A stretch of DNA of 64,000 nt from Montifringilla adamsi. Taxonomy: Eukaryota > Chordata > Aves > Passeriformes > Passeridae. The notes beneath the pieces were generated by a model that was not told the origin of the DNA, ran no database searches, and saw only the letters and a program-made list of their open reading frames with translations. Below, piece by piece: positions 39,165 to 64,000 of the stretch. Positions within the stretch are counted from its first letter, which is position 1. Every line of letters starts with the position of its first letter. The position numbers and the translations under genes are program-made. The stretch covers positions 8,919,609-8,983,608 of the forward strand of contig JAGGNK010008337.1 of NCBI GenBank assembly GCA_017590115.1, written 5' to 3'.

Positions 39165-40250
39165 TGAATCTCCTCCTCAAGCTTAATTCTAGGAGCAATC
39201 ATTACAATTTTGAGCAACCACTGAATAACATCTTGAACAAGAATAGGAATTAACACCCTCACTATCATTCCACTCATCTCCAAATCTGCAAATCCCACCA
39301 CCCACGAGCCACTGAAGCCATAATCAAATACTTCCCCAGTACAAGCAGCTGCCTCAACATTCGTTGTCTTTTGAAGAAGAACCACTGTGACACTAACAAA
39401 TTAAACCACACAACGTCCTGCCCCTACTGACAACAGCAACTGCAGTCTAACTAGTCCCAGTCCCTTTTCAATCCTGATTCACAGAAGAACTTAATCCCTA
39501 ATCACTGCTATCAACAAAAATTAAATTCACTGCCACCCATTCTTGTCCTAAATCACTCTACTCAAAATTATTAAACACCATAATCCTTGCCTCAGCAGCT
39601 CTAGGAGACTGAACTGGACTAAATCAAACACAGATTTGAAAAGTCTTAAGCATTCTCACTTGGGTTGAATAGCCTAATAATTATTATGGCAGTAATAGCC
39701 AAACCCCCCCTACTTATCCTTCCTTATAACTGCCACAACAGTCCTCGCTCTCAACACAAACAAAGCTCAAAAAATACCAATGATAATGGCCTAAAGAACA
39801 AAAATATGGGTGAGGGCACAGGAGACAGAGTCTACTCACCCCAAACTTCAGGTGGCAACAGAAAACTTCACTTTCCCAATCCCTCCCTTAACAGAGCATT
39901 TGAAAGACCCAGTCTGGATGCTCTCATTGGTTTGAACCCCACTCCCCTTCAGGTCCTGGCCAGTGAGATGGCTGCAGCCTTGGGAGATATTTGGTTGGCC
40001 AACACCCTTGTCAATCACTGTAACATCCATATACACACTAAAATCTCACTATTACTCTTAGGCTCCCTAGCAGGACTTCCCCTGCTACCAGGATTCCTGT
40101 TTAAACGACTTATTATTGAAAATCTTACTAAGCACGTAATGACCAAAACAGATACAGTCATTGTCATACTCTCACTACTAGGATTGCTCCTGTGCCTTCC
40201 CCTCACATAATATTCGCCAGACACACTGCCGCCACTCCAAAGAAAAGCCC
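39165..40250 (+). pseudogene. ND2 pseudogene within the NUMT
   Basis: NADH dehydrogenase subunit 2, a membrane subunit of respiratory complex I, is recognisable from its middle (SHHPRA-like CCCACCACCCACGAGCC near 39293; GGACTGAACTGGACTAAATC near 39608) to its end (LLLLGSLAGLPLLPGF and LTKHVMTKTD near 40045-40145). Numerous substitutions and stops are present. A stretch of about 220 bases at roughly 39807-40028 has no mitochondrial similarity and splits the gene. Confidence 0.85.
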
Positions 40251-44285: not shown

Positions 44286-44487
44286 TTAGCTACGATAGCT
44301 ATCATTATCATCAAAGTAAGAATCACAATCTGAATCATTATCAATCATGAAGTTGTCTTCATCAAGGTCGTCATCATCATCATCATCATCATAGTCTTCC
44401 TGCCACTGTGGATCATATTCCTCATCTTCAACCTCCTTGCCACCTTCATCTGTGTTGGGGGAGTCACACAGGAGGATGCGTTTTTGC
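44286..44487 (-). CDS. CUL9: CUL9 terminal exon: Asp-rich tail
   Basis: A 202-nt exon starting [16 protein letters not shown] and ending at TAA (44286-44288). It holds [13 protein letters not shown], then a run of eight Asp and the ending [11 protein letters not shown]. Human CUL9 also ends in a Glu/Asp-rich tail, though the residues differ. Confidence 0.9.
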
Positions 44488-47400
44488 CTGTTGAGAAGAG
44501 CATAAAAGCAGAGTCTCTCCTGTGAGCATCAGCTGGGACCCAGCCCCACAACACTCTACTGTCATTGTCTCAGCATCCCCAGCCAAAGAAACTCAAGAGA
44601 GTCCAGGGAGAGCAACTTCCATAACTGAGTGTGCCAGTGATGGAGTTTTCTTGATCATAGCTGCATACAAACAGAGGTTTTGCTCGTTTCCCTACACCAC
44701 TACATCACTTAAATTGCTACCTCAGGGGGAAACCACAAAACCACAAAACAGGATGCAAGTAATCAGTGTTTGTCATTCACTCTTTTGTATGTCAGTGAGT
44801 ACAGAAGAAAACTCTGCTCACCTGCTTTTTGTCTGCACTCACTCACCTTTCCCTGTTACCCCACTAAGAAAACTCACCCTGTACATGCAAGGGCTGAAGC
44901 AGGCACATTTGCAAGTTTCAGCTTTCTCTGAACAGCATCTCCTGCAATCTGGAGCCCAACATGGAAATCCTGTTAGCAGCAAAGAACAGCCAAAAGAGAC
45001 AGAAACACTATGTAATTCGGGGTGTATTTTGCACCACAAACCCCAACCCTACACACACACAACCCTGAGTCTATCCCCTCAGCTGATCAAGCCCTTTAGT
45101 TTGCCCACAGTCAAATCAGACCAGAGCAAGACAAGCCACAAACAGCCACGTGGCCTTCACCTGTGTGGAGTGCCAGAGAATTGCAAAGAGACGCTCCTTG
45201 ATCTGCCGCACCAACTCCAAACCCGTGTGGAAGTGCTCTGCTTTCAGGAGCTGAAGAGAAGTGGCCAGGTCCTGGTACTGCAGCAGGGTTTCCTCTGCAA
45301 TTCAAGGCCAACAAAGTCATGCTGCATCCCACACACCTGAGTAGAGACCAAGTCCTTGGCTCTGGTTATTAAGCCAGCCATAGCTGCTTACACCTCCTGT
45401 GCAAATTCCTCTTTCAGAACAGAACATGTTGCTCATTACTGCATCAATCTCCACTGGCAGCCAAACTGCTCCAGTGGACTTCCTCAGAAATGACATCAAG
45501 CAGGCAAGGACTGGACTGGGAGAAGTGAGGCCAGCTGGGTGTTGGTATATATGCCCCACTACTGACCTGCTGCTCTTTGAATACAGCTAGAAATGCTAGT
45601 CACAACTTCAAGGAGGCTGCAGGACTTACCCAGAAGGATCTGCAGAGCATTAGTGAGCAGCTCCAGGCTCTCAGTCTGCTGTTCCACAATATCCATGCTC
45701 TCAGTGTCCTGGTTATAGTAGCTGTACACACAGGAGTAGGCCAGCACCTGGAAAAGTACACATCATCTTGTTAAGCACCCTCTTTCAGCTTCAGAGTGGG
45801 CAAGAAGGGAGCAGCATCAATCCCCTCCAGACCTCAATAGTATCAGTGGCCTCTGGCCTGTGGCCATAGCCCAGTGACCCATTATGACAAGTGACAGCAG
45901 TGCCAGGCTAACTCAAGCTACTGGTAGGATTGGAAATGAATGTGCAATTATTTTATATTGAAGTCTGAAATAACTGATTTTTCCCACCTGCAAACCATCA
46001 CAAGAACACAGACTGTAAATGCATAACAAGTGTGACTGACCAGTGGGCAAAGAGTCAAACCCATCAGCACACAGGACTAGGCAATGCTGGGCAGCCCAGG
46101 CTGAACAAAAGTGGCAGTGAACAAAGAGAATGGAGCCCAAAGGGAAGCAGGCATGGTGCTGTACAGCACCAAGAGCCCACAACAAAGGCATTTCAACAAG
46201 TGGTAAACTCCAGTTATGAATTAATGACCCCTAAAGCCATATAGGCACCCATCAGGGAATGAGATCACTGTTTCCATTTAAATAAATGAGCCAGAAAACT
46301 CAGCAGCAGCAGCAACAAGCAACAGTGATATGTACCCCAGAAATATCAGGGGCTACTACACTGAGAAGACAAAATAGGGTCAGGCACCCTTGTCCCACAT
46401 GCCTCTCTCAAAATCAAGCCTACCTGCAAAACCAAGGTGTATATGCCAAGTCAGCACTGCAAAGAAAATTCCCACCGGCCGATGTTTCAGGACAGAGCAG
46501 GCATTGCAGACCTAAGATGTCACACACAGTGGCTGCACCACAAATCCTTTTTAGTGTGGCTATGAGGACATGCAGTGGGTAACTCACTGCTTCCAAAATA
46601 TCCATATTTCATGAAATGAAGTTAAGAAAAGAAAATCCTAACACGAGCATCAAGAGGAACTTCTTGACTGCAACACAGCATCAGGAGAATTTTCAAAGTA
46701 CCTTCACTGGGCATTTCTAATAGGAATGGACCAAACCCAGTGGATGAAAACCATAAATATTGACTTTGTGTTGATTCCACGGTGTCAGCTTGAGCTGAGC
46801 TCCAAATCCTATGACCTTACTGTCAGGAACACTGGAAACAGAGCTCAACTCAGACTCAAAGCAGGGAAGGGCAGACATGAGCTCTTCCCCTGTCCTGATG
46901 CTACTCCTCCCCTCAAGCTTTCTCTGTCTCCTCTTTTTTGGAGAAGAACAAGGTTGGTGTCTCCTCACACCAGCAGAATTAAGTCTAAACTTCAGCAAGA
47001 CTGTATTATCCAGCCTTACCTTCCGTGCCTGTTCTAGCACTTTGCAGGCATCAAGAACAAAGGTCAAGTTCCTAATTTTTGGCATCTCTCTGATGGAAGA
47101 AATGCTGTTCCTCAGACTTACAGCAAATTCCTGCAAAAACCAAAGGAGGGGGAGAAAAAAGTCAGTGTCACTGTCAAGCTCCACAAGATTGAAAAAACAG
47201 CACCTTCCACACAAATAATTGCTAAGCATTCTGAAGTGTCATCCCAGAAGATGCAGGCAGCAGAAGAGCATTTAATGCATCCAACTATGACACTTCTACT
47301 GTGCCATCACTTCAACCTTTTACATCACCTCAGCTCTGAGCAGAGCTCAGCCTTCAGTCATCATTGCTTCCAACTCCTGCACCACTCTGAGCCCCTCAAC

Positions 47401-50400
47401 ACCACAAATCAGGTGCTCAGTTTCCACAACAGACTGAAAGAAAGAAAGCAGCCAAGGACTGCTCCTTAATGTCAGAGCCAGGGCAAAATGGTGATCCAGT
47501 GATTCCAGCCGGGATGTGAAGCCTGCTTCTAAGCAGAGAAGACACTGACACAACAGAAAGTGCCCTGCTCACCAGGGCTGAGCAGCAGTCAGCATCTGCA
47601 AAGGAAGGAGGAGGCCTTACCCTTGCGTGGTGATGAAAGGTGCATCTCTCGTTGTAATCCTGGAAACGCTTCTCCTGCCAAGCTGCTTTACTCACCTGAA
47701 AGGAAAGGTACGGGAACTTGTAGCAATTTCCTTCGAGTACCAGGGCTACCTGGAAATGCCAATATTACTGGCAAATTCACAAAGTCTAGAGTAAAGGGCC
47801 CAAGTGGAGATCCTTACCATCTCTGAGAGGCTACAGGGGTCTCTGAACACAAGCATGAACCACGGAGATACAGCAAACCACTCACCATAGCAGAGCAGTT
47901 GTAATAATCCTTGTGATTCGGCCTCCAGGGCTTGAGGCAGCGCCAGCAGAAGCCATGATTACACTTTGCACATGTCATACTGCAGAAGGACAATGGGAAT
48001 TGCTCAGTCCTGACAGCAACTTGCAGACAGTCCCTGACAGTGCTTCCCTACACCACAGCCAGGGACTGTGCCACTCAGTCACAAACACAGTAACAAACAA
48101 AACTGTATACTCACTGCAGGCACCCCTCATTTTTCTCTATCTGAGCCTGGCAGTTTGGGCAGTGCTTCGAAATGAGCTTAGCCAGGTGTTTGCTTTGGGC
48201 TTCACTTGTCATTCCCTCATAGTATCCATCATCATCCACCCACCGAGACATGTGGCTGCAGCTGGCAGGATAATGGGCCTGAGAGATAGAGAAAGGCAAT
48301 CAGTCAACCACACAAAAGCACAAGGGTGTGTGCCAAACCTAAGACAGTACAGCCTGTGATCCAGCTCAGCCTCACCTCTGGGAAGTTGCAGTTGAAGCAG
48401 GATATCCAGGAGCACTTGGAACAGGCTGCTCCATAACCAAGTCCATCTTTAAGGAGGATCTGATCACAGCCCTGAGGGTTGGTGCACCATGTCAGGTTGG
48501 AGCAACACTCAACATAGCGTCTGAGGAGGGCTTTTTCATACTGTAATGGGAAGCCAGGAAAGAGATTTAAGCCTGAGAAGCTGCATGGTCAGGCCTTAAA
48601 AGCAGTGTCTGGTGCTCTGGGCTCTGCATCTCACCAAACTGCTCACAATAAAACAGCACTCAGTCAGTTTACCCTTTTGTGTTCATTTTTCTATCCCCAC
48701 CATGCCATACCTGGAAGCTGTTGCATTTCATAGAATTGCTGTGGTTGGAAAGCATTTCTGGAAATAAAACCTAGTTCAACCTCTCTTAAATCAGGATTGC
48801 TCAGGATTGTGTCCAGTTGGATTTTGAATATACCAAAGCACAGAGACTAGAAACCTCTCTGCCCCAACTGGTACCATGCAGTGGGTGACACCATGTGTCA
48901 CTACCCTTACTATTGGGAAAAAAACCCCAACCCCAACAAACAGTTTTCTTATGTTTAAATATAATTCCAGCATTAGATCTTCATACAATAATCTAGTTAT
49001 TTTGAGCTCAGGATTGGACCAGAGACCTCCACAGATTACTGCAACCCAAAATATTCTATGACTGTATGTGTGACTCTGCATCAGACATTAACACTCCAGC
49101 CACACCACTTACTGATCAAAAGGAAAACATAACATTTCAGTGAGAGCATCAGAGCAACTTGTTAAAATTACCTGCTATTTATGTCAACCTGCAATAATTA
49201 TTTCTTTTTATAAAACAGTCACAGCAACAGGCTACTAAATCCTGCTTTCAGACAGGTGTGACTATGGGATTTGCAAAAGCAGTAAGGACTGACTGTCCAG
49301 ATATACGCATTAATTCTCCAAACACTTTCTATAAAAAACAAGCCAAAAGATACAACTGTCAAACAACAGAGCAGGGGAAAAGAGACTGTTCTACCCAGCA
49401 GTTAACAAAAAGAGTCTGTCATGTGACAGCTACAGCTCTGCCATTCGGTGGGGAAGGCATTCAGCCCTAAAAACTGAAAAAACAGAAAAAGTAGCTTCTG
49501 CTTTAGAACAAGCATCTATTGCTGTAGCCTGATGACCAAGGAGTAAGGTAAGCAGAGCTCAGAAAGCCTGGTTCAGATAAGTCTGTAGACTCACACAGAC
49601 TCAGAGTGAAAATTAAGTCTGATGTGGTAATTCCTGCCATCTTCACAAAAACCTGAATTGCTCAAAACCAGAGACCGATGGAAGAGAAAGGACAGAGGGG
49701 TCACTGATGCAGCAGTAAAATTAAATTGCTCATGTTTTCATTTTGCTTTAATATTATTATTATTATTATTAAATTTCTTCCAGCACACCAGTAGAGGATA
49801 CTTGTCATGAGCTGCTACCAAGGCTCTCACCTAGTCCTGATCTTATGATGTCCCTAAAATGTTGCTTGCTAGAGATACATTTAGAGGAAACACCACTGTG
49901 TTCTTTTGTTGACGTTATGCTTTCCTGAACAGCTGGTATTGACCATAATCAGAGAAAACAGACAAAATCTGGCTGGCCACCATTATGACACTGCCAGTCT
50001 TGGTAACAGGAAGGAGAAAAGCAGCAACAAAATTATCTGATAGTGCTGACCAAAATGTAAGAGAGCTTGGACAGCCAGCAGCCACCCCTCCTGCTTCACC
50101 TTGGCGATGATCTCCTCGGAGGACACGATGGAGTAGATGAAGGCTGTGGTGGGCTGAGCACGGCACTCGGATATGGGACAGGTGCAGTTGACAACCATGT
50201 TCTGCTCAATGCGAGTTGTGAGATACTCCCTCCAACAGGGCTGGCAGGGCACAAGAGCAGAGATCAGGCCTAAGCAGGACTGTGTGACCCTGGAAGCCCT
50301 CCCCAGCCAGCAGAGGGTGCACAAAACCCCATAGATCAGTACCCCAAAGCACAAAAGTGGGAATACACAAACCAGGGAGTCAAGCACCACAACAAAGAAG

Positions 50401-53400
50401 TGAGCTAAGAGAATGCACAAGCTCTGAAAAATCCCCTAATAACAACTTCAGACAAAGAACAGCTGCTCCAAGTAGACAGCAGCAATTCCCTGTCAAGTAG
50501 CAGGAACCAAAGGCCCCAGGACCTTCACCTTGCAACAGTAGTGCATGCAGCAAAGGGTTGGTGGCTTCTCAGTGGGACACAGCTGGTTCACACAGACTGG
50601 GCAGTGGGTTCCAGGGCTTGGAGGAGGCTGGACATCCTGCACTTGCAGCCCTGAGGAGATGAGCAGGGCCTCACGGTTCTCCACATAGCACTGGATCAGG
50701 AAATCCACATTCCACCTACAGTGCATGAGGAGGTGCCGAGCAACATCATCTGGTATGCTCAGAGTATCCTGGACCTGCTGTACTGTCTGGTTCATGAGCA
50801 GCTTTGCCTCCTCTGGACTGAGCGTGTGCCCCATTGGCACCTGCAGCATTGCCATGAGATATTCTTCCACCCTGTCTGTGCCAGGATTCCGCCTGACATG
50901 GAGAAATGTGCCATGTTCACACAGGGTGGAAATGCACACCCCTCCACACCTGGTGACATGCACGCTTACCAGTGCAGGCTGTCTCCGCTGTCCTCCTCCA
51001 GAGATGCCTGGGCTGGCCTGCACTGGAAAGTCATCTGTGCTTGGCCGCCAAGAGGTGCTGAGGATTCAGCAGAGATGTATTCCAAGACATGAGGCCTCCC
51101 CTCCTGGCGCCGGAGATAGCCCTGGTTCAGCAGGTGCAGGATGCAGGACAGCACGTCCACGCTGTGGCAGCAGAAGCTCAGGAACTGCACCCCTGGGCCC
51201 AACTCTCCCTTCTGACAGGCATCGATCACCTAGGGCAGCAAGAGAGCCCCAGTGCAGTGGCTGCAGCCCCCAGGCAGCTCCTGTGCCCCCTGCGCCCCCT
51301 GCACCCCCGTACCCTGAACACCAGGTTGTCGATGTGCAGCTGCTTCTCCACCTTGAGGATGCGGGTGATGAGGCAGCACAGGACGTTCCTCTTCCTTTCC
51401 AGGGCGCTCACCTCGGCCTTCTCTGTCCGCAGGTAGCGCTGCTGGGGCAGCAGCCTCAACTGGCGGCCGGAGCTCTGGGCCAGGGCTGCCTGGTTCAGCC
51501 GCAGTGCACCTGGAGCCAGCCCCAAGCCAGGCTCAGCCAAGCTGGAGCTGGGCCCTGAAGGAGCCCCAGGACACACGTGTGGCTGGGGACCCAAGCTGGG
51601 CCTCCTGCGGCTGCCTGCACCGCTGGCCACCCCAGCCCTGTCCCCCACGTGTGGCCCCAAGCCACAGCCACACACACGGCCCCGGCTCTGGCCCAAGCCC
51701 ACACACAGACCGAGACCCACCCACCCAGCCACGCTGACCCAGGCCCCGTGCATGGCCCCCAGCCCCACCCCACACATCACCCCCAGCCCTGCACTGGCCT
51801 CAGGCCCCACCCTGACACACACACCTGTGCCCCGAGCACCAACACGTGGACCCAGCCCCCTCACCAGCCCTACCAGCTCCTGCACCCTAAGCCAAGCACC
51901 CCCTGGGGGTCCAGGCCAGCCCCTACCCTGGGTGCCCCAGCCCCGTGCTCACCCCCTGGAGTGCAGCTCCCCACCAGGACGCCCTGGCCGTGGGTCAGCG
52001 GGGTCAGCGCGTGATGCACCAGGTCAGCAGGGAGCCCCGTAGCCTGCAGCAGGGCCTCCACAGCCACCTCCTGCAGCACGGGGTGGGAGGGCAATGGCCA
52101 AGAGTCACTGGCCCTGCCTAAGAACGGGGTCCTGTGCCCCAAACACCGCTGGAGATCCAACATGAAGGCAAGGGAGGACACGGCCCTGCCACGCCCCAGC
52201 CTCCACCGCCTCCCTGGCCCCACCATGGCTCCAGCCCCTACCTGGGCGCTGTTGAAGCACAGCAGGATGTACATCTGCAGCGTGGACACGTGCAGGACGC
52301 AGTCTCCAAACTGCAGCTCGGCGTGGCCCAGCCACGTCCACTGCAGCCGACGGGGCTTCGTGCACTCCCAGCCCAGCTGGCTCTGGCCTGCCGGGGACAG
52401 TGTCAGGGACGGGAACCAGCCGTGCCAGGCACTCCCAGCCCACCACCACTTGTGCCTGAGCTGCCCTCGAGGGTCTGGGCACACCTCCGGCCACAGCACT
52501 CACTCTGCCGGCAGAAGTCAGCAAACTCATCCAGTGGGGAGCTCAGCACCGCCGGGAAAAACCTCCCAGGGTTCTCCATGTAACAGAGCGGGGAAACGGG
52601 CCAGCAGCGCGGGGACAGGGCCAGCACCTTCACCTCTGGCACGTCTGCCACTGCGGCTGGTCCCAGCACCTGGGCACAGGGGCACAAGGGCAGCTCAAGT
52701 CAGGCTCCGGGATCCCACCAGGAAAGCCGGCGGCCTCTGGCCTCCCTACACCCGCATCCCTCTCACCTCATCCGGGCCCGTGTCCAGCTCCAGCAGCCGC
52801 TTGTCCTGCTCCTGCAGCTGGAAGAGGCAGAACTGCCGCTGGAGCTCCTCCGACTCGGCCAAGTTGCTCAGCATATCTTGGGGAAAGCGGCTGGGGAAGC
52901 ACAGCCCGATCTGCTCCACGATGCCTCCTTCCAGCCAAGATGGCCCTTGTGTCAGGAGCCGGTCCCCCAGGTAGTGCCTGCCGTGGCCACCAGCTCCAGT
53001 CAGGGCTGGGCCCGAGCCCTGTGGCCGTCAGCCACCCACCAGGAGACAGCCACAGGTCCGAGCCCAGAGCACCCCCTGGGGGTCCAGGCCAGCCCCTACC
53101 CTGGGTGCCCCAGCCCCGTGCTCACCCCCTGGAGTGCAGCTCCCCACCAGGACGCCCTGGCCGTGGGTCAGCGGGGTCAGCGCGTGGTGCACCAGGTCAG
53201 CAGGGAGCCCCGTAGCCTGCAGCAGGGCCTCCACAGCCACCTCCTGCAGCACGGGGTGGGAGACCAATGGCCAAGAGTCACTGGCCCTGCCTAAGAATGG
53301 GGTCCTGTGCCCCAAACACCGCTGGAGATCCAACATGAAGGCAAGGGAGGACACGGCCCTGCCACGCCCCAGCCTCCACCGCCTCCCTGGCCCCACCATG

Positions 53401-56400
53401 GCTCCAGCCCCTACCTGGGCGCTGTTGAAGCACAGCAGGATGTACATCTGCAGCGTGGACACGTGCAGGACGCAGTCTCCAAACTGCAGCTCGGCGTGGC
53501 CCAGCCACGTCCACTGCAGCCGACGGGGCTTCGTGCACTCCCAGCCCAGCTGGCTCTGGCCTGCCGGGGACAGTGTCAGGGACGGGGACCAGCACTCCCA
53601 GCCCACCACCACTTGTGCCTGAGCTGCCCTCGAGGGTCTGGGCGCACCTCCAGCCACAGCACTCACTCTGCCGGCAGAAGTCAGCAAACTCATCCAGTGG
53701 GGAGCTCAGCACCGCCGGGAAAAACCTCCCAGGGTTCTCCATGTAACAGAGCGGGGAAACGGGCCAGCAGCGCGGGGACAGGGCCAGCACCTTCACCTCT
53801 GGCACGTCTGCCACTGCGGCTGGTCCCAGCACCTGGGCACAGGGGCACAAGGGCAGCTCAAGTCAGGCTCCGGGATCCCACCAGGAAAGCCGGCGGCCTC
53901 TGGCCTCCCTACACCCGCATCCCTCTCACCTCATCCGGGCCCGTGTCCAGCTCCAGCAGCCGCTTGTCCTGCTCCTGCAGCTGGAAGAGGCAGAACTGCC
54001 GCTGGAGCTCCTCCGACTCGGCCAAGTTGCTCAGCATATCTTGGGGAAAGCGGCTGGGGAAGCACAGCCCGATCTGCTCCACGATGCCTCCTTCCAGCCA
54101 AGATGGCCCTTGTGTCAGGAGCCGGTCCCCCAGGTAGTGCCTGCCGTGGCCACCAGCTCCAGTCAGGGCTGGGCCCGAGCCCTGTGGCCGTCAGCCACCC
54201 ACCAGGAGACAGCCACAGGTCCGAGCCCACCCTCACCCCACGGCACACGGGCCTGGCAGTACACATGTGTCCCCTCCCTGTCCCCAGCAGGGAATGAGAT
54301 TCCACACACTGGCAGCATCTACGGGCCCTCCACACTCCATGATCCCGTAAAAGCAAAGCAGGGGCAGCACTGCCACAGCAGGCCAAGCTCCCACAGCACA
54401 CCAGGCCACGCTGCAGCAGGCCCCTGGTTCTGGGGAGACGCAGCAGCCTCACCTGTAGAAGTGTTCAAAGGTGTGGGCAAACTCCAGGCCACTGAAGACG
54501 ACGAAGGGCTCCAAGAATTGCTGCAGCCGCTCCAGAGGCCCCGTGCTGCCCGCAGCCCTGCGGAGCTCCTGGATCTGCACGTCAAGGTAGCGGGCAAACT
54601 GCTCACTCACCTGCAAGGGACAGGCTGGCTGCAGACAGGACTCACCAGGTGCCCACAGGGCTGGGATGGGGGAATGTCCCTGCAGGGAGCAGCCGGAAAA
54701 CTCTGGCACTCCCGGGCAGGGGCCGAGGGTGCCCAGGCACCAGCCCAAGGCCGGGCCCACACTGGGATGAGTGCCACACACGACTCGACCCGTGGTAGGC
54801 CCCACGGTCCCGAGGGCTCTGTGGCTCAGGGGGGAACAGGACACCACCCACCCAGAGCTTGTCCCAGTGCCGCGGGCCAGGGCAGCTCCCCAGCCCCTGC
54901 CCAGGCCACGGCACCGGGGCCGCGCTCCCTCAACTCACGTGCAGGGCAGTCAGGAAGGAGAGCTGCAGCAAAGCCCCCGCAAAGCCCTGGCCCAGGGCCA
55001 GCACAAAGGCGGCCTGCTGCCCGAAGAGCTCCTCCGTGGCCCCGCGCAGGCGCCGGTACAGCCGGCAGTAGCGCTCCGCAAGGTCCGGCGCCTGCCCCGC
55101 CGCCTCCAGGAACCGCTGCACCTGCGGGAGCGGCGCGAGGGCTGAGCCGCAGCGGGATGTGCCCTCGGAACATCCCCAGCCTGCCCTGCCAACACCAGCT
55201 GCCTGCTCCCCGGGACTCGGGGCCCTGCTGCTGCTGCTGCTGCGGGGCTGCCAAGGTGGGAGCGCAGCTCTGAGGGCTGCCCAGGGGCTGTGGGGGCACT
55301 ACGGAGACACAGCAGCAGCCCAGCAGGAAATAACAGCCCGGCACCGGACCTGGCTCCTGGCCTGGCTGACACTCGAGCCATGCCACAAGCGCAGCAGGGC
55401 CGTCCCCACATCGCTCCAGGCTCTGTGGAGGCCAGGTACAGCCCTGTGCCTTCCCCATGCTCCCAGGGCACTGCCAGACACCACTCCCTGCTCCAACCAC
55501 CCAGGGAAGGTCCCACACCCCTCCCAGGCAGCCCTCCAAGCTCTACCTGCTGCTGCACCACGCCACGCCAGCACTGCGAGATTCCCCACAGGCCTCTCGA
55601 TTTCTCCACCACCGCCTTTGCAGTCCTGGCCGGCACCTCCTTGTTCTTCCCCTGCTTCCCACCTGCCAAGGGTCAGTCTCAGGCTCAGTGTGGCTCCGTG
55701 GGCAGGCCCTGCACACTGACCTGCCACAGCAGGGCTGAGGGGACGCTGGGGAGGCACGGCCACTGCTGGGGCATGGCCACAAGCCTTCCCAAGCTCAGGA
55801 GCCTCTGTGCCATAGGATGCTCCCAGAGGAGCCCCATGGCCACAGCCTGGCACTCCGGAGCAGCCCCAGGGCAGGGCAGCTCCTGGCTCACCAGCTGCTC
55901 TGCTCTCCTCTGGCTCGGGGCCGCCGGGGTCCACGTGCACCAGGAGCTGGGTCAGGCGCCGCACGCAGGAACCAAAGGCAGCCCTGCGTCCCGTGGCAGG
56001 GCGGGGCAGCTCCACGCTCTCCAGGTACTCACTCAGCAGCCAGGCCAAGGGACTGACACCATTGGGGTCTGCGAGGCCAACCAGACCCTCAGCCAGGTGC
56101 CTCTGCCTGGGGCACGGCACGGCTGGCTCCCGGAGAGCGCAGGCTACCTGGGCTGGTGATGCTCTGCACCAAGGGGTTCACCAGGGCCTCCCAGAACGTC
56201 CTGCCCAGAGCCCGGGCTGCCTCATCGTCGGGAAGGAAGCGGTTGGCAAAGCCCTGCTCGTGCTGCAGCGCCCGGTTCAGTCTGCAAAGCAACCAGGCAG
56301 CACTCAGTGCCAAGGGCTGGAGAACTCCCATGGCAAAGCAGAGCGCAGTGGTGGCTCCCTGCTCTGCCCTTTGCCAAGGCACGATGGCTCCCTGGCCCCA

Positions 56401-59400
56401 CTGGCCCCCAGCAGCCAGGGAGGGCCCCTTGCTGTCCCCGGGGCCTGCCCCCAATGGCCCTCGGGGCCCTCGCAGCTCCTGCCAAATGGGGGCTGTGCAG
56501 TGCCTGTGGCCACAAGATCCTGCTGTGCCTGGCCAACCTCTGTCAGGACGTGCCAGCCCCTGGGGGGACCAGCATCCTGCCCTGGGGGGTTAGCCCAGCT
56601 TAAACCCAGATGACCCCAAGGTGGCCCTGGTCCAAGGAAGGACCCCAGGAAGAAGCAAGGGCCCCTCCCATCCAGGTGCCACAGCCAGCTGCTCCTTTCC
56701 CAGCCCTGCAGTCCCCTCGCAGGCTGCCAGCCATGTCCCCCCCGGGCCCTGGGACACCAGGGATGCGATGGCACAGCCAGGACACGACTCACCTGCCAAA
56801 GAGCTGCAGCAGCCGCCCCCGGTCTCGGCAGATCTCCTGGCTCCAGGCGTGAGCCCGAGCGGTGCAGGAGAGGAACGTCCGCCGGCACAGCTGCTCCCTG
56901 AAGATGGGCCAGAAGGTGGGCTTGGGACCCAGCACCTCGATGCCACGCACACGTGTGTCAATGCCACCCTACGGGACAGCGGGACCCTCAGTTCCTCGGG
57001 CAGGGCCCCGACGCCCCGCACTGCCCGCTGCCAGGCCCAGCCCCTGCTCCCCTACCTGCTGGCACCGCTTCACCCGGATCTGGATGACGGGCCAGAAGCG
57101 GGTCATGTTCTCCAGCAGGATCACTCTGCTGTCCGAGGGCAGGATGGTCACCTGCACGGAGGCACCGAGCCCTCAGCGTGACAGGCAGCCCAAGGAGCTC
57201 CCACAGCGCAGCTCCGGCCATTCCCACCTCCCCGAGGGCACCTCCCCGGGCCTCACACCACAGCCAGACCTCCACGGGCCACAGCAAGGACCAGCCCACC
57301 GCTCCCCCGGGGACTCACCGCATTGAGCTCCGTCCTGATGGTGGCAGGGCTGTCCCCGCCCAGCACCACCACCCTCGATGGCATATAGCTGGAGTCCTCG
57401 CTGGCCACCAGCATGCTCAGCTCCCTGCAGCACAGCAAACACGGGGCTGCCCAGCCATTCCCGCCTCCCTGCCCCAGCCCTGAGGGCACCACGCCCTGCC
57501 AGCCTCCTCCTGCTGTCCTGGGACGGGGCCACTGTGGCAGGGCTGGCACACATCCCCAAAACCCTCTCCTCCACACACAGCCCTGCTGGCCCAGCCCCAC
57601 CTGATCACCACTCCACACTGCATGTGCACAGTGATGAAGTGGGAGCCAGTGCTGCCGTTCGACTCCCAGTAGGTCCTGGGGTTCCTGTCCATGAGCTTGC
57701 TGGCCTGGTGTGAGTTGGAAGAGACCTGCACCTTCTCCCAACACTTGTCCTCCTTCACCTCCATGCTGGAGCCTGTGGGCAGAGCACATGGAGCTTCCAG
57801 CCACCAAGACTGGGGTCAGCACCCACTGCCTGCACTCACCTTGGCACAGGTTGTGCAGGAAGACATCAAAGAAGGGGATGCTGATGGGCTGGTGGCTCCG
57901 GCGGTGCTCCTCAATCTGTCCCAGGACCAGCTGTGGCATGGGGCAAGGCTCTTACCAGGAGCCCCAGATCCTCCTCCCCTCAGCCCCCGCAGGGCTGTGC
58001 CAGGCAGGGAGCACAAGGCCATCCCTTGGCAGCAGGGACAGCCTGATGCCCCCAGACCCAAATCCCCAGGCAGCCGTGCCTCCCCTGCCCACCTGGATGC
58101 AGCCAGCCAGGATGCTGCTCGTCAGCTTCTTGTAGAGGCTGGCGTACTTCTCACACTCCGCCACCAGCTCGAGCAGGGCCGGCGCCAACGACGGCACCGT
58201 GCTGTGCTTTTCCAGGGCTTTGGACAGAGCCTCGTGGGTGCCCACGTGGCACATCACCACCACACAGTCCTTGCTGGCACTGCCCAGGCGGTGCAGGAAG
58301 CCAACGACCTCCTGCAGCACCTACGGAGACACAGCCGTGAGCAGACGGGCACTGCTGGCAACTCCCCAGGGCCCCCAGCAGCCGGAGCTGCAGCTCCATT
58401 CCCCTCATCCCAACCCCACCAGCACCCACCAGAGCCTGGCCAGGCACAGCCAGGCCGGGCATGTGGCCACCAGGACACGGACACAGCCAGGACAGCCGCT
58501 CCCCACCTCTCAGTGCCTCAGACACAAGGCCAGGCTGCCACCAGTGGGGCCCTGCTTGCCCAGCCCGGCTGAGGCACAGCCGGCACAGCCACCCTGCCTG
58601 CCACGAGTCCCGGGGCCCCCTCACCTCCCAGCTGCTGCTGTGCGTGATCAGGAAGGACACGCAGGGCTCCACACACTCATGCCAGGGCAGCACATCCTCC
58701 TGGTAACTGTCCAGGAACTTGTTCAGGATCCTGGGTGACAGAGGGGGCCTGCTCAGGCTGGGCCACAGGGACAGCAGTGCTGCAGGCAGCCCTGCTTCCC
58801 TGCCCCACCTGGAAGGCACCTCTCAGGGACTGGGAACCAAGGCTCCCCTGGCACCTTGCACACCCCACCAGCACCCAGGCATGTCCTCTGCTGCCCCTGC
58901 AGGCCCCCACCAGCACCAGGCACAGCTGCTGTGGCCCCACGTGGCCCTGTGCCCCAGGACACACCAACTGGCACTCGCCTACATGCTGGGGTGCGCCTGC
59001 CCCCAGTGAAGAACACCCCCACCAGGACCCACAAACATGCACTGGGTCTCCCCACCATGACCCCCAGCACTCACACACCTCATGAGGGGGTCCCAGACCC
59101 CACTCAGTCACCCTGCACCCACCTGAGGATGCTCAGGCTCACGGCCTTCTCTGTCCCCAGCAGCTCCAAGCTGCGCAGCAACAGCCTGAAGCAGCTGTGG
59201 TCCTGCAGCAGCTGGGCCACCTGGCCAGAGGGAACAGGGCCTTGGCTGCAGAGCTGCCGCTCCAGGGCCACCACCACCTCCTTGGACAGGACGCCATCGT
59301 CCAGGCCACCCAGCAGCATCTGCACGCCCTTGGGGTCCAGCAGGAGCTCTCTGCCTGCCATGACAAGGACACGTGAGCCCAGCCCAGGCGCTCGCTCGAG

Positions 59401-62400
59401 CGACAGCAGCCCCTCAGGGTGCTCTGCCCCGTCAGGCTGGGCAGTCCCACCCGTGGTACCCGTGGGGCCATGGCACAGGCAGGGTGGGCAGCACGGTACC
59501 TGCTGCCTCCGGGCCCAGGGGCAGCCCGTGCTCTGCCAGCCGATTGATGGCGCTGAGGGCCAGCACTGCCTGGGGGCAGCCGCTGCTCTGCCCGGCCCTC
59601 CAGCAGCTCTGCAGCACCGCCAGGAGATCGCAGCTCGCCAGCTGCTCTGCCAGGCCCCGGTGCCCGTCCATCAGCATGTTCACCACCAGCAGGCCGTTCT
59701 GCACTCCTGAGGAGCCCCTGCAGGGACACAGCCGTGCCACTCTCCTCCACCGGGCACAGAGCCTCCCCTGCACCCACAAGCCACCTGCCCGCCCTGCCCC
59801 TCCTTCCCCCTGCTGATTCCGGCCAACCTCAGCCGCTCTCCACGCTTGGCCCCTACCCTGGGACCCTCTGCATGGTGCTCAGGGCAGCAGGGATGCTACT
59901 CAGCAGGCTGGCAGAGCCCTTGCTGGAGGCAGAGCCGATGCTGGCAAAGATCTCCCGCATCATCTGCGCATCGCCGTGGTTCCAGGGCAAGCACTTCCCA
60001 CCGGCGCCTCCCGGCTCGGCGTCCGCAGCTCCCACCAGCACCTTCAGGGCCTGCGAGGACGAGAGCAGCGCGCAGGGCAGCGGCCCCTCCAGCCCGCCGG
60101 GGCGGCCCGCGCTCCCTGCCCAGCCCGGCACGCCCCGGCACTCACCGCCAGCCCGGCCTGCTGCACCAGGGCCGAGCAGCCGTGCTGCTGCATGCAGCCC
60201 AGCACGGCCCGCACGCCGCCCTCCGTGGCAAAGGGCACGCGCCACTCGTAGCACAGGGCCAGCAGCACGGCCAGCAGCCGCAGCGTCACCGCCACCAGCG
60301 CCTTCTCTGACACCTCCGTGCTCAGCAGCTCCACTGACACCTGCACCAGCTTCTCCCTGCATGGGACAGGACACCTCAGGCACGGCCTCCTTGGGCCCTG
60401 ACAGCCACCTCCTTCCTGCCCACGCTGCAGTTGGGATGGCCCTGCCAATGAGCCTGCCTGGGACAAAGGGACACAAAATCCACCTTTCCTCTCGCACACG
60501 CCACCCTTCACACTCCCGCTGCCACCTCCCGCTCTTCCGGCCCAGCACCGTCCCCCACCCTGCCCACAGGGCCCCCTCAGGCAGCAGGAGGGCTGTGCAG
60601 CACCCCAGCACTCACCCAGCACTCCCGATGCCCAGCCCGCCCTGGGCTGTGCCAACTTGCTGCTCCGACTTGGGCTCCTCCTCCAGCATCTTCAGGATGT
60701 GCTTGAGCCCAGCTAAGCGCAGCCCCACCGCTGAGCTGCTGCTCTGGATCACGTCCACCACAGCTGCAACCTTGGCCAGCGAGCCGCTCTCGCTCAGCCC
60801 CTTGGAGCTGCCCAGCGGACCGGCCTCCCTGCCTCCGGTCAGGGCAGCCGTGACACCTCCAGCAGCTCCCAGGGTGTCACACACCCACAGACCCAGCGCC
60901 CACAGGCACCCCCACTTCAGGCAGCCCTGCCTGCGTGGCCCCCATGCCCTGCCCAGAGCCTTCCCCTGGGGGGCAGCAGTGCCGCTGCCAGCACCGCACC
61001 TGTGCCCCGACGTGTGGCAGGACATTACCTTGGCTCTGCTCCTCCGTCACCTCTGGCAGGAACAGCCCTTCCCTCTCCAAGAGCTCGCTGAACAGCTGGG
61101 AATCTGACTTCACTGCCACACTGCAGCCTTGGGGTCCGGGACCCCGACGTCTTTCCAGAGGGAGGGCTGCCTTGGCCATCGTGCCTTCAGGGCCGGTGCT
61201 CCTGTCACCCTCTGAGGACACTGCGGTGCTCCCTCCACCATCCTGCTCTGCTCCCCTTCCGAGGAAGCGTCTGGCGTAGACACGGGAGCCACGCAGGTCA
61301 CGCAGAGAGCTGCTCTGGCACCGCTTCTCCAGGACCTGCAGCACCTTCTGGGCCAGCTCCGCAGGTACCGACAGCTGCACCAGGGCTTCTTCATCCACCT
61401 CCGACAGCCACACCCAGGCGACAAGTTAATCTCGGGCTCCCCACGCACCCCATGCCCCTTGTGGCGGCCACTGCCACCATGGACAGAAAGGCTGCACCGC
61501 CAGAGGTACCCAGGGCCACTCCCCACTGCCACCCTCCCCTGCCTGTCCCCGGCCCAACTCCCACCAGCCCACACCTCCCACCCGTGCTCACCACCCAACT
61601 GCAACTGGCAGAATGACCCCACGGCCTTGCCTCGCCTGCCCAAACCTTGCTGGACAGTCACTCTTCCAGTCAGGGGACACTGCCTTTCCTCTCATCAACA
61701 CTCACTGCTCTGCTGGGCCGAGCTCTCCAAGCTTTCGCCATCTCCATTCACCCTCCCATTTCTGCCCCGTTCAGGCTGTCCCTGCACAGCTCACACCTGC
61801 CATCTCCTCCCTAATGTTCCCTTTGCTCCTCCCTCCCATTTCCCTGCTGCAGGCACTGGCCCCTACCTGCTCTCCCTGGTGCTGCTGGATGAGACAGGTC
61901 ATCTCTTTCTGCTCCTGTGCTTCCAGCTTCCTCACAAAGAAGAGCAGCTCCCACCACTCGGCACGGCTCAGCGTGTCTGCAGCCTTGGGCAGCCGCTGGC
62001 CCAGGTAAGGCAGGGAGTACAGCCCCCCCAAGGGCTTGCACAGGAATGGCTGTGGAACTGCAGGGGACGTCTCGTTCCTTCCCGTGACAGTCGAGACGCA
62101 ACTCCCCCGTTCTCTGCTGCACACCCCACATTTCAATTCATATTCTAAGTGGGATATGATGCCTGGAAAGAGTTATACACAGAAGTGAAACAGAGCTCCT
62201 GCTTCTCCCAAAATCAGAAAGACCATGAAAAGGAGAAATCTAACTAAGTTTGTTTTAAGTTAGACATTGCACACTGACATGAAGTTAAGCCTTTAAACAC
62301 AAGAGGTAGAAGCCATTTAAGAAACCATCTTTTCAACTGGAAATAAGAATAGTTTCAAAGTGTGCAATTAGCTGCTGATCTCATCAACACTCTCTCTAGC

Positions 62401-63225
62401 AGCCAGTAAATCCAAACCACTCTACACAAAAGATATTCTAGAAGGCCACAGCTGTGATAAAAGAGTTACTTTAATAGGTCTCCCTGGCTAGAATCATGTC
62501 AGATGCTGAACAAGAAAGGGGTATCTGAAGTCTGGATTCTGCTTTTTATTTTGTCCCAGTACAAGGGCAATGTTAAATGTTCTAGGAGATGCTGCAGATG
62601 TCTTACAAAATCAGTTCTTTAATACTTTAACACCTTGTTAAAAGCTCAACAGTATGAAGTTAAACAAATTGTTGCTATGTTCATGCTTTTAAAAATCCTT
62701 ATCACTTACTTAAGAGGACTTGAGTGCCCCCAAACAGCTTCATCTCAGAGAAATTCTAAGATTTTCTAGAGAAAGTCATGTTTTGGCAGTTCAGTCAATT
62801 AATTCAAACATAAAGTTTTGACAGTTGCAGTTTAAATAAAATTTTATGCTCTTTATATCATTACTTTCATTATACATCTTGACAGAAGTCTAGGGTTCAA
62901 AAATACTCCATTAAATCACAAGCCATGCAATTCCTTAAGTAGCTTTACATGTTCACACAAACTAATAGTGCTTTCTGAACCCAGCCTGCTACTTGCTGTG
63001 TATTTGGCCATATAAAAGGTCACTACTCCTATCCCACAGGATAATCAGAAAGAAAGAGATGATATATACATGCATCACAATCTCACCTGTGTCTAGACTG
63101 AAGCTCTTTCTCACACTGTATTCCTTCTCCTGAGCAGCAGGATCTTCCCACTTGTCCCCAAAGCCAATAATCTCCAGTATGTGCCAACGTACCCAGTAGG
63201 TCCGACCCGTTGACTGCCGTAAAAC
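44286..63225 (-). CDS. CUL9: Cullin-9 (PARC) E3 ubiquitin ligase, N terminus outside the window
   Basis: CUL9 is a large cytoplasmic ubiquitin ligase related to CUL7 that binds p53 and has a fused RBR module. Counting one copy of the duplicated block, 37 exons join with matching phase into 2083 residues plus a stop; human CUL9 has about 2517, so roughly 400 N-terminal residues lie to the right. Domains in order: CPH (63087-63225), ARM-like repeats (61398-58093), DOC/APC10 (57930-57056), cullin repeats and cullin homology (56968-51313), winged helix (51229-50970), RBR (50892-47621), helical tail and acidic C terminus (47130-44286). The RING2 motif GCLHMTC identifies the RBR catalytic Cys. CUL7 is excluded because it lacks RBR. 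The gene is convergent with CAPN13. A four-exon block is tandemly duplicated. Confidence 0.93.
44362..44393. repeat. In-frame CAT/GAT trinucleotide run in CUL9 coding exon
   Basis: The + strand shows repeated CATCAT units. On the minus strand they are GAT codons giving the Asp run. An in-frame microsatellite like this could vary in length between birds. Confidence 0.85.
44878..45747 (-). CDS. CUL9: CUL9 exons: C-terminal helical region
   Basis: Exons 45630-45747 ([19 protein letters not shown] and [18 protein letters not shown]), 45161-45294 ([19 protein letters not shown] and [11 protein letters not shown]) and 44878-44948 ([16 protein letters not shown]). The last exon starts at ATTGCAGG because only the upstream GGCTCCAG acceptor keeps the frame open; the nearer TTGCAG would run into a stop. 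Confidence 0.85.
47020..47695 (-). CDS. CUL9: CUL9 exons: post-RING2 helices
   Basis: Exons 47621-47695 ([20 protein letters not shown]) and 47020-47130 ([17 protein letters not shown] and VLEQARK). This is the Ariadne-like helical region after RING2, conserved in CUL9. Confidence 0.93.
47886..48278 (-). CDS. CUL9: CUL9 exons: RING2 catalytic domain
   Basis: Exons 48115-48278 and 47886-47979. They encode [34 protein letters not shown], then [17 protein letters not shown]. The RBR thioester Cys is the one in GCLHMTC, directly at the exon junction. The intact motif predicts an active HECT-like transfer mechanism. Confidence 0.95.
48376..48540 (-). CDS. CUL9: CUL9 exon: IBR domain
   Basis: A 165-nt phase 0-0 exon encoding [19 protein letters not shown] and [10 protein letters not shown], then [16 protein letters not shown]. 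Paired CxxC motifs define the in-between-RING zinc domain. Confidence 0.94.
48541..50099 (-). other. CUL9 intron between RING1 and IBR exons
   Basis: The longest CUL9 intron except one near the 3' end. It contains a CR1 fragment (48728-48965) and a short (TTA)n run near 49752. No other signal was seen. Confidence 0.6.
48728..48965 (-). mobile_element. CR1 LINE 3' fragment in a CUL9 intron
   Basis: The + strand begins TTTCATAGAATTGCTGTGGT and TGGAAAGCATTTCTGG, followed by CCTAGTTCAACCTCTC, the CR1 3' end in reverse. It is diverged, so probably old. Confidence 0.75.
50100..50892 (-). CDS. CUL9: CUL9 exons: UBA-like helix and RING1
   Basis: Exons 50529-50892 and 50100-50240. The first has [20 protein letters not shown] and a [10 protein letters not shown] helix, then HCPVCVNQL and LCCMHYCCK. 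The second has [20 protein letters not shown] and [10 protein letters not shown]. Cys/His spacing fits RING1 of an RBR ligase, which binds the charged E2. Confidence 0.94.
50970..51229 (-). CDS. CUL9: CUL9 exon: winged helix and linker
   Basis: A 260-nt exon encoding [20 protein letters not shown] and RPHVLEYIS, the cullin C-terminal winged helix, followed by an acidic linker. In canonical cullins this region contacts the RING protein; here the RBR is fused downstream. Confidence 0.92.
51313..51509 (-). CDS. CUL9: CUL9 exon: winged-helix start and NEDD8-site region
   Basis: A 197-nt exon encoding [18 protein letters not shown] and [19 protein letters not shown]. The Lys in RILK-V/A-x-x corresponds to the NEDD8 acceptor region of cullins. 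The position is inferred from alignment memory. Confidence 0.92.
51510..51952. repeat. C/A-rich low-complexity CUL9 intron
   Basis: The intron next to duplicate copy A has imperfect repeats of CCCAGCCCC and CACACA. It borders the duplicated block and may have favoured its misalignment. Confidence 0.6.
51895..53067. repeat. Tandem duplication unit A (four CUL9 exons)
   Basis: It begins AGCACCCCCTGGGGGTCCAG and ends CAGGTCCGAGCCCAG. The next unit starts with the same AGCACC. Length is 1173 bases, against about 1162 for unit B owing to a 10-base indel near 52415. Confidence 0.9.
51953..52977 (-). CDS. CUL9: CUL9 cullin-domain exons, duplicate copy A
   Basis: Exons 52767-52977, 52504-52669, 52242-52387 and 51953-52070 repeat copy B. 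I find one synonymous change in the exons (CAT/CAC in the VHHA segment) and a few intron changes. They fit in phase onto the next exon at 51313-51509. The set cannot follow copy B in frame, because copy B ends one base into a codon while copy A starts needing two bases carried over. One of the two sets must be skipped, or one is not really there. Confidence 0.8.
53068..54229. repeat. Tandem duplication unit B (four CUL9 exons)
   Basis: I count about seven substitutions and one 10-base gap relative to unit A, roughly 99.4% identity. Only one change falls in an exon and it is silent. Confidence 0.9.
53126..54140 (-). CDS. CUL9: CUL9 cullin-domain exons, duplicate copy B
   Basis: Exons 53930-54140 ([18 protein letters not shown] and an [16 protein letters not shown] helix), 53667-53832 ([18 protein letters not shown]), 53415-53560 ([17 protein letters not shown] and [15 protein letters not shown]) and 53126-53243 ([19 protein letters not shown]). 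These are the core of the cullin homology domain and fit in phase after the 54453-54610 exon. All splice sites are intact and no stop interrupts them. The same four exons recur at 51953-52977. Confidence 0.88.
54453..55121 (-). CDS. CUL9: CUL9 exons: cullin repeat region
   Basis: Exons 54939-55121 and 54453-54610. They encode [51 protein letters not shown] and [16 protein letters not shown]. The region matches the cullin helical repeats that precede the cullin homology domain. Confidence 0.93.
55547..56968 (-). CDS. CUL9: CUL9 exons: DOC-cullin junction and first cullin repeats
   Basis: Exons 56793-56968, 56148-56281, 55892-56068 and 55547-55662. They encode [45 protein letters not shown] and [14 protein letters not shown] with [14 protein letters not shown], followed by a Lys-rich linker and [12 protein letters not shown]. 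The 55892 exon start uses the GCCTCGCAG acceptor, which gives the conserved [10 protein letters not shown] join. Confidence 0.92.
57056..57930 (-). CDS. CUL9: CUL9 exons: DOC/APC10 domain
   Basis: Exons 57840-57930, 57601-57772, 57319-57424 and 57056-57151. They contain [61 protein letters not shown] and [15 protein letters not shown]. This beta-sandwich fold is shared with the APC10/DOC1 subunit of the anaphase-promoting complex. It is the best-conserved stretch of the gene outside the RBR. Confidence 0.95.
58093..59354 (-). CDS. CUL9: CUL9 exons: ARM-like repeats, second part
   Basis: Exons 59123-59354, 58625-58730 and 58093-58320. They encode [31 protein letters not shown] and [14 protein letters not shown], followed by [19 protein letters not shown]. 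The last matches the highly conserved CUL9 segment directly before the DOC domain. Confidence 0.93.
59500..60832 (-). CDS. CUL9: CUL9 exons: ARM-like repeats, first part
   Basis: Exons 60616-60832, 60146-60356, 59857-60050 and 59500-59717. Leucine-rich helical repeats include [50 protein letters not shown] and [13 protein letters not shown]. They form the helical scaffold N-terminal to the DOC domain and are clearly homologous in order to human CUL9. The exons are very GC-rich. Confidence 0.92.
61029..62057 (-). CDS. CUL9: CUL9 exons: linker after CPH
   Basis: Two exons, 61867-62057 and 61029-61398. The first carries [12 protein letters not shown] and [15 protein letters not shown], matching the CUL9 AEWWELLFF motif. 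The second carries [12 protein letters not shown] and [15 protein letters not shown]. The middle of the second exon is Gly/Ser/Arg-rich and poorly conserved, probably disordered. Confidence 0.9.
62058..63086 (-). other. CUL9 intron after the CPH exon
   Basis: AT-rich intron with no recognised repeat or exon. GC content drops sharply here compared with the compact block to its left. Confidence 0.6.
63087..63225 (-). CDS. CUL9: CUL9 exon: CPH domain
   Basis: A 139-nt exon encoding [18 protein letters not shown], the core of the CPH (CUL7-PARC-HERC2) domain that binds the p53 tetramerisation region in CUL7 and CUL9. Borders are CCCACAG and GTGAGA. It is the most 5' CUL9 exon in the window; no further exon is evident in 63226-64000. 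Confidence 0.93.
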
Positions 63226-64000
63226 CTGTGGGTGAAACGAATCCAGACATTCAGATCTGCTCACTTGTTCTATCCTCTTGCTACGTTTGTCCTCCCACTT
63301 CCCAAAGAAGAAGACCACACAATTTTTGTACAGATTTCAGCACTCACACTGTCCAGTTTTGAGGCATATCATCTTTACTAACTTCTTGCCTTGGTTACAC
63401 CTGGATCTTTATTTTTAAAAAAAACACTAACTTTGCCTGCAACCACTACAGATCTCAGTACAGCAGCAGAGGCATGAGTGCATCCAGTTAATCACACCTG
63501 TTCCAAAAGTGCCAAGCTGCAGGTGCCTTGGGAAAAGCAGACAAAGGGCATAACCAACACTACCTTGAGGAGATGTATATAAAGTACGTCAGGGCACTTT
63601 TATAACCTTGGTCATTCATCAACCCTCTCAAACAGGTTTTGGGCTCTTGATAAGCATGTCTCAAAAGCAGAAATTGTTTCCTCTGCTTTGTCCAAGTTGC
63701 CTCTCAAAAATCAGAAGGACTTTTTACAGCTTCCCATACCATAGTGTTACATTTAATCTTCTGAGCAAAAGGAGAACCCAGCAACAGCAAGTACAATGTC
63801 AGTAGCTTTAAAAAAACAGCAGAAAAACATATGGTTTGCCTGCTTCACTGAGCTCTTTTGGAGTTACACCAGTGTTACTATGAACCCACTGTGATGGCCA
63901 GCTGAGATGCTGACAGACTCTGGGGAAGCACAGTATGGAAGGAAGTTGAGTTAAACTACACACAACACCAAATAGTCTTCAACGTACCTCTGACCTAAGC
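63226..64000 (-). other. Upstream CUL9 intron, nothing coding recognised
   Basis: The preceding CUL9 exon, which should encode the segment before QSTGRTYW, is not visible in the last 775 bases, so it lies beyond the window. Confidence 0.5.

What the first reader, a model, noticed from the sequence alone, without database searches (positions are those of the whole stretch)
51895..54229. Near-identical tandem duplication of a four-exon block inside CUL9
A 1.17-kb unit holding the core of the cullin homology domain occurs twice head to tail with about seven substitutions and one 10-base gap. All eight exons keep open frames and splice sites. Either a very recent duplication altered a conserved ubiquitin ligase, or the assembly placed two haplotypes side by side. 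The slight divergence is of the order expected between alleles, which makes the artefact explanation serious.
Basis: seen in the sequence. Interest (0 to 1): 0.75.

Follow-up and report, generated by a model that had tools for sequence, protein, structure and literature searches.

The report
Repeated CUL9 exons, likely assembly artefact
Four exons of a bird ubiquitin-ligase gene appear twice in a row in this assembly, but the second copy would break the protein's reading frame, so it is more likely an assembly error than a real change, and it lies in a stretch that birds seem to keep nearly identical between two sister genes.

Summary
The head-to-tail repeat is there: 51895-53067 and 53068-54229, with 7 substitutions and one 10-base gap, in CUL9 on the minus strand of a passerine. 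Including all eight exons gives a stop 8 codons into the second copy, before the neddylation site and the RBR. Either copy alone keeps the frame open through the neighbouring exons. Exons differ at 1 of 641 sites, the rest at 6 of 521, which looks like two alleles or paralogues. I judge a false duplication most likely (0.7). Against it: no gap at the join; and no reads were available. No block repeat was found in 270 fetched proteins, but protein models could hide a frame-breaking one.

The locus is easy to misassemble. In five bird species CUL7-type and CUL9 proteins are 93-100% identical by bin over about 1,400 residues here. They pair by species, not by gene, except in the CPH segment: concerted evolution. 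In the window this tract coincides with a 67% GC island, 50951-62100. Searches found no report of it.

The parts
51895..53067 (-). repeat unit 1 (second in the direction of transcription)
53068..54229 (-). repeat unit 2 (first in the direction of transcription), lacking 10 bases that unit 1 has at 52419-52428
53050..53085 (.). join of the two units: GAGCCCA, one extra G, then AGCACC; no N
53930..54140 (-). exon a, unit 2 (211 nt; needs 2 carried bases)
53667..53832 (-). exon b, unit 2 (166 nt)
53415..53560 (-). exon g, unit 2 (146 nt)
53126..53243 (-). exon d, unit 2 (118 nt; carries 1 base out)
52767..52977 (-). exon a, unit 1; holds the premature stop if spliced after exon d of unit 2
52504..52669 (-). 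exon b, unit 1
52242..52387 (-). exon g, unit 1
51953..52070 (-). exon d, unit 1; only exonic difference between the units, at 52014 (synonymous)
44289..63228 (-). CUL9: tblastn pieces for Agelaius CUL9 residues 421-2505 (earlier exons would lie beyond the right edge)
50951..62100 (.). 67.2% GC island (46.0% to its left, 39.9% to its right) that coincides with the CUL7/CUL9 near-identical tract

Best explanation
A false duplication in the assembly: two near-identical versions of one 1.16-kb stretch were laid end to end inside a CUL9 gene that otherwise looks complete. They are most likely the two alleles of this GC-rich stretch; second, the CUL9 version and that of its near-identical CUL7-type paralogue. 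Shown: the repeat, its divergence, the frame break, and the open single-copy reading around the block. Inferred: that the bird's chromosome carries the block once.
For: The full eight-exon reading frameshifts and stops 8 codons into unit 1, while either unit alone gives 0 stops from the preceding exon through the two following exons. tblastn finds the rest of CUL9 (residues 421-2505) in order (splice joins away from the block were not checked). Divergence is 0.60% (95% 0.24-1.24%), within the range of bird heterozygosity (0.95% and 0.34% for two birds in PMC9516828, passages seen). Differences tend to avoid exons (1 of 641 sites against 6 of 521; P 0.035 or 0.068). By eye, each unit carries its own derived change: an unnamed 181-aa read-through protein (P0013) has the residues of the 10 bases and PLPS like unit 1 but the S of GWSPSL like unit 2. 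0 of 270 fetched proteins have the block twice (108 of them hold the motifs of exons a, b and g). Gene models of Pyrgilauda (P0001, P0004) and Lonchura (P0176) begin at the same internal Met of exon a, which suggests assembly breaks nearby. False duplications of several exons within bird genes are documented (ZBTB11, ALDH2).
Against: No N run at the join, whereas the false duplications in PMC9516828 were marked by gaps between the copies. The join has a shared CCA and one extra base (by eye), which also fits end joining. The absence of the repeat from relatives' proteins is weak: annotation pipelines may drop frame-breaking exons, and no bird DNA but the window could be searched. The exon-avoidance statistic is modest. 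No reads or depth could be examined.
Confidence: 0.7

Rival explanations
1. A real, recent tandem duplication inside CUL9, fixed or segregating. It would truncate CUL9 before the neddylated WHB and the RBR, or be tolerated because splicing uses only one unit's worth of exons.
For: Gap-free join with one extra base. 22 of 256 exon subsets stay stop-free, 5 of them with exactly one each of a, b, g, d, so skipping could save the protein.
Against: Frame-breaking when fully spliced. Differences tend to avoid exons although one copy should be free to drift. None of the 270 fetched proteins shows it, though that is weak for a frame-breaking change.
Confidence: 0.2
2. A real insertion of a CUL7-derived copy of the block into CUL9 (or a template switch) during the exchange that keeps the two genes alike.
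For: Within species the CUL7-type and CUL9 proteins are 93-100% identical by 100-residue bin over this region. The block proteins of Passer montanus CUL9 and Passer domesticus CUL7-type differ by one residue (by eye).
Against: No CUL7 sequence of this bird was available. Ordinary conversion replaces, it does not add. The frame break applies here too.
Confidence: 0.07

Closest known systems
Heterotype false duplication (PMC9516828; passages seen)
   Same: Adjacent near-identical copies at allele-like divergence covering several exons of one gene
   Different: No assembly gap at the join; depth and k-mers untested here
CUL9 (PARC), cullin-RBR E3 ligase (PMC11257990; passages seen)
   Same: Window gene has the CPH, cullin, WHB and RBR exons in order
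   Different: A block within the 4HB-to-WHB part occurs twice, out of frame with itself
Concerted evolution of paralogues by gene conversion (general knowledge)
   Same: CUL7-type and CUL9 pair by species in the core but by gene in the CPH segment
   Different: No paper on CUL7/CUL9 found (open-access library only)

Membership tests
CUL9 | Cullin homology with C-terminal RBR | tested here: met
   tblastn pieces for Agelaius CUL9 residues 421-2505 in order on the minus strand; PDB match of the block to Cullin-9
CUL9 | One open reading frame through the cullin region | tested here: inconclusive
   Open with either unit alone, not with both units spliced in; other exon joins were not checked
Heterotype false duplication | Allele-like divergence between adjacent copies | tested here: met
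   0.60% (95% 0.24-1.24%) plus one 10-base gap
Heterotype false duplication | Assembly gap between the copies | tested here: not met
   0 N in the window; so filed as a likely false duplication in general, not as a proven member of this class
Heterotype false duplication | Haploid read depth and discordant read pairs | not testable with these tools
   No reads; the search of the window's own genome was unanswered in eleven calls
Functional tandem exon duplication | Unit length keeps the frame | tested here: not met
   641 nt; 2 bases carried in, 1 carried out
Concerted evolution (CUL7/CUL9) | Paralogues group by species in the exchanged tract | tested here: met
   Core tree, 23 rows: six same-species pairs are sisters at 99-100% SH-aLRT; CUL7-type rows as one clade rejected, p-AU 9.8e-09
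Concerted evolution (CUL7/CUL9) | Paralogues group by gene outside the tract | tested here: met
   CPH tree, 22 rows: two gene groups at 100% SH-aLRT; 3 of 6 species pairs put to the AU test: Buteo 3.5e-13, Sylvia 4.5e-05, Pseudopipra 0.058 (not rejected at 0.05); the groups were seen before the test

The most novel reading that the evidence does not exclude
The duplication is real and a by-product of long-running CUL7-CUL9 gene conversion: an exchange that went wrong added a second cullin block to CUL9, cutting the RBR off unless splicing skips one copy, so that this bird lineage may be losing the RBR form while CUL7 continues.
Probability: 0.12. Interest if true: 0.6.

Novelty: not a real feature. 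Interest (0 to 1): 0.3.

Why it matters
As it stands the repeat would lead an annotator to call a truncated or two-part CUL9 in this bird, which is probably false. The surroundings matter more: if CUL7 and CUL9 really exchange sequence in birds (and perhaps turtles) while keeping distinct CPH segments and C-termini, this is a clear natural experiment on interlocus gene conversion and its possible GC bias, and a standing hazard for assembling both genes.

Tried and rejected
Functional exon duplication: rejected as the main reading because the block is out of frame with itself. The RBR-less proteins of about 1,965 residues as splice forms of CUL9: rejected, because within-species differences are scattered, the segment near residues 340-480 is only 21-80% identical by 20-residue bin in six species pairs, and the C-terminus ends in FSTFR like human CUL7 (P0231). 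Columba P0168 does not end so and sits with CUL9 in the CPH tree; it and Patagioenas were dropped before the tests (23 of 25 rows kept; Passer montanus is also missing from the 22-row CPH tree because that segment is absent from its model). P0246, flagged for internal repeats, holds a short repeat outside the block. Junction-specific peptides were sought in the fetched proteins: none, but short-read contigs would be expected to break at the join, so this says little. An exon end was set wrongly and corrected; the 6 in-frame subsets are void. A mitochondrial (ND2-like) insert guessed by eye at 39650-40210 was not supported by Pfam or the PDB. No Rfam family at gathering score and no tRNA in the window. 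Paper search for snowfinch assemblies: one paper listed, not opened.

Full report
WHAT IS THERE. Units 51895-53067 and 53068-54229 lie head to tail without a gap. They differ by 7 substitutions and a 10-base gap, all within 52014-52489 of unit 1. The left flank ends CTAAGCCA, the right flank begins CCCTCACC, and the join reads GAGCCCA-G-AGCACC. The clustering of the differences is weakly unusual (span P 0.021 for 7 independent sites, 0.046 for 6 events).

THE GENE. tblastn with bird CUL9 (P0057, Agelaius) places residues 421-2505 in order from 63228 down to 44289 on the minus strand; residues 1587-1802 hit twice. Exons in each unit are 211, 166, 146 and 118 nt with standard splice sites. The block corresponds to residues 1599-1818 of Cullin-9 in 8q7e_A. 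In human CUL9 that lies between the start of the 4HB (1538) and the neddylated K1881 of the WHB (PMC11257990, passages). The window is from a passerine. The nearest named protein is cullin-7-like of Pyrgilauda ruficollis (P0001, P0004); by eye P0001 differs by one residue beyond two that my query lacked. The species itself was not established.

FRAME. The exon before the block passes 2 bases on; exon d passes 1 base on. Hence d to a is out of frame. With either unit alone, the stretch from the preceding exon through the two following exons has 0 stops. With both units the first stop comes after ...[12 protein letters not shown], ahead of the WHB and RBR exons; nonsense-mediated decay would be expected (inference). 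Of the 256 subsets of the eight exons, 22 are stop-free, 5 of them with one each of a, b, g, d. Exon joins elsewhere in the gene were not checked.

REAL OR ARTEFACT. Exons differ at 1 of 641 sites (synonymous), the rest of the unit at 6 of 521 plus the gap. That is the pattern of two sequences both under selection, which alleles and paralogues are and a frame-broken duplicate need not be. The statistic is modest (P 0.035, or 0.068 with the adjacent pair as one event). Total divergence of 0.60% (0.24-1.24%) is within bird heterozygosity. Three protein searches gave 270 distinct proteins: 54; 120 listed of 786, where only the 7,989 candidates sharing most words were scored; 98, two of them seen before, with a like limit of 7,994. 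Of the 270, 108 hold the motifs of exons a, b and g; none holds the g motif twice. Three Varanus rows match the short b motif twice but g once, and one fish row holds an unrelated short repeat. Because the duplication breaks the frame, protein models might not show it, so this absence is weak evidence. No reads were available, and the request to search the window's own genome did not complete (eleven calls, listed in Tried and rejected).

WHY THIS LOCUS IS HAZARDOUS. In birds a second, RBR-less protein ending in FSTFR, as human CUL7 does (P0231), is 93.7-96.0% identical to CUL9 of the same species over about 1,940 residues in five species. By 100-residue bins from 500 to 1,900 it is 96-100% in four of the five and 93-100% in Pithys. 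CUL9 of different species (Sylvia and Pseudopipra) is 62-97% identical by bin. For humans the figure between CUL7 and CUL9 is 63% over 1,978 residues (PMC11257990). In the core tree (23 rows, 1,393 columns, LG+G4, quick search) the six same-species pairs, and the congeneric Vidua and Passer stand-ins, are sisters with 99-100% SH-aLRT, even in the two manakins Pseudopipra and Chiroxiphia. Holding the CUL7-type rows together is rejected (p-AU 9.8e-09). In the CPH segment the two genes form separate groups at 100%; of three species pairs tested, two are rejected and one (Pseudopipra, 0.058) is not at the 0.05 level. These groups had been seen before the test. For turtles, different species stand in for a pair: Terrapene CUL7-type is 93.4% identical to Eretmochelys CUL9 over 754 residues, above Eretmochelys-Emydura CUL9 at 87.7% over 2,513; the stretches differ, so the comparison is rough. 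A caecilian pair (Rhinatrema P0186, P0268; type of the second unknown) is 92.6% over 297 residues, and the Pogona pair only 74.5%. The simplest reading is interlocus gene conversion that spares the CPH segment. It rests on predicted proteins from assemblies, and misassembly of the same kind could inflate the likeness.

THE WINDOW BEARS THE MARK. A two-breakpoint fit puts a 67.2% GC island at 50951-62100 (46.0% to the left, 39.9% to the right). The CUL7-shared tract begins near 62049-62058 and ends about inside the exon at 51229-50969 (the residue numbers come from two different birds). GC3 is 0.55 in the CPH exon, 0.72-0.96 over residues 468-1954 and 0.34-0.79 beyond. GC-biased conversion as the cause is inference; exon density and other causes were not excluded. 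(CUL7 + CUL9 with gene conversion, or with birds) returned 0 papers in an open-access library, and the six (listing only) are on other subjects. That is no proof that it is unreported.

VERDICT. The biological reading is unlikely because the duplication breaks the frame. False duplication of alleles, or of CUL7 against CUL9, is the best account at 0.7, decidable by reads.

Noticed in passing
window 50951-62100 and bird proteins P0055-P0174: CUL7-type and CUL9 show concerted evolution in birds (and perhaps turtles) over the core and N-terminal tracts, with the CPH segment and C-termini kept distinct; the tract in the window is a sharp GC island.
   Followed up: partly
window 8415-8756 (+): One of 10 ORFs scanned (of 54 listed) matches Pfam Calpain_III (E 1.5e-07), so a calpain gene probably lies beyond the 3' end of CUL9 on the other strand.
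   Followed up: no
window 39650-40210 (+): An ORF of 186 aa looks by eye like a decayed mitochondrial ND2 insert, but Pfam and PDB searches gave no match.
   Followed up: partly
proteins P0001, P0004, P0176: Gene models of Pyrgilauda ruficollis and Lonchura striata start at the same internal Met of exon a; P0001 lies on a 1,341-base contig. This stretch may be hard to assemble in several passerines.
   Followed up: partly
proteins P0149 and P0070: The CPH region of the RBR-less Sylvia protein matches Cullin-9 in the PDB better (146.8 bits) than that of the RBR-bearing one does (109.2 bits), so the RBR-bearing gene may have the faster-changing CPH in birds (one species).
   Followed up: no
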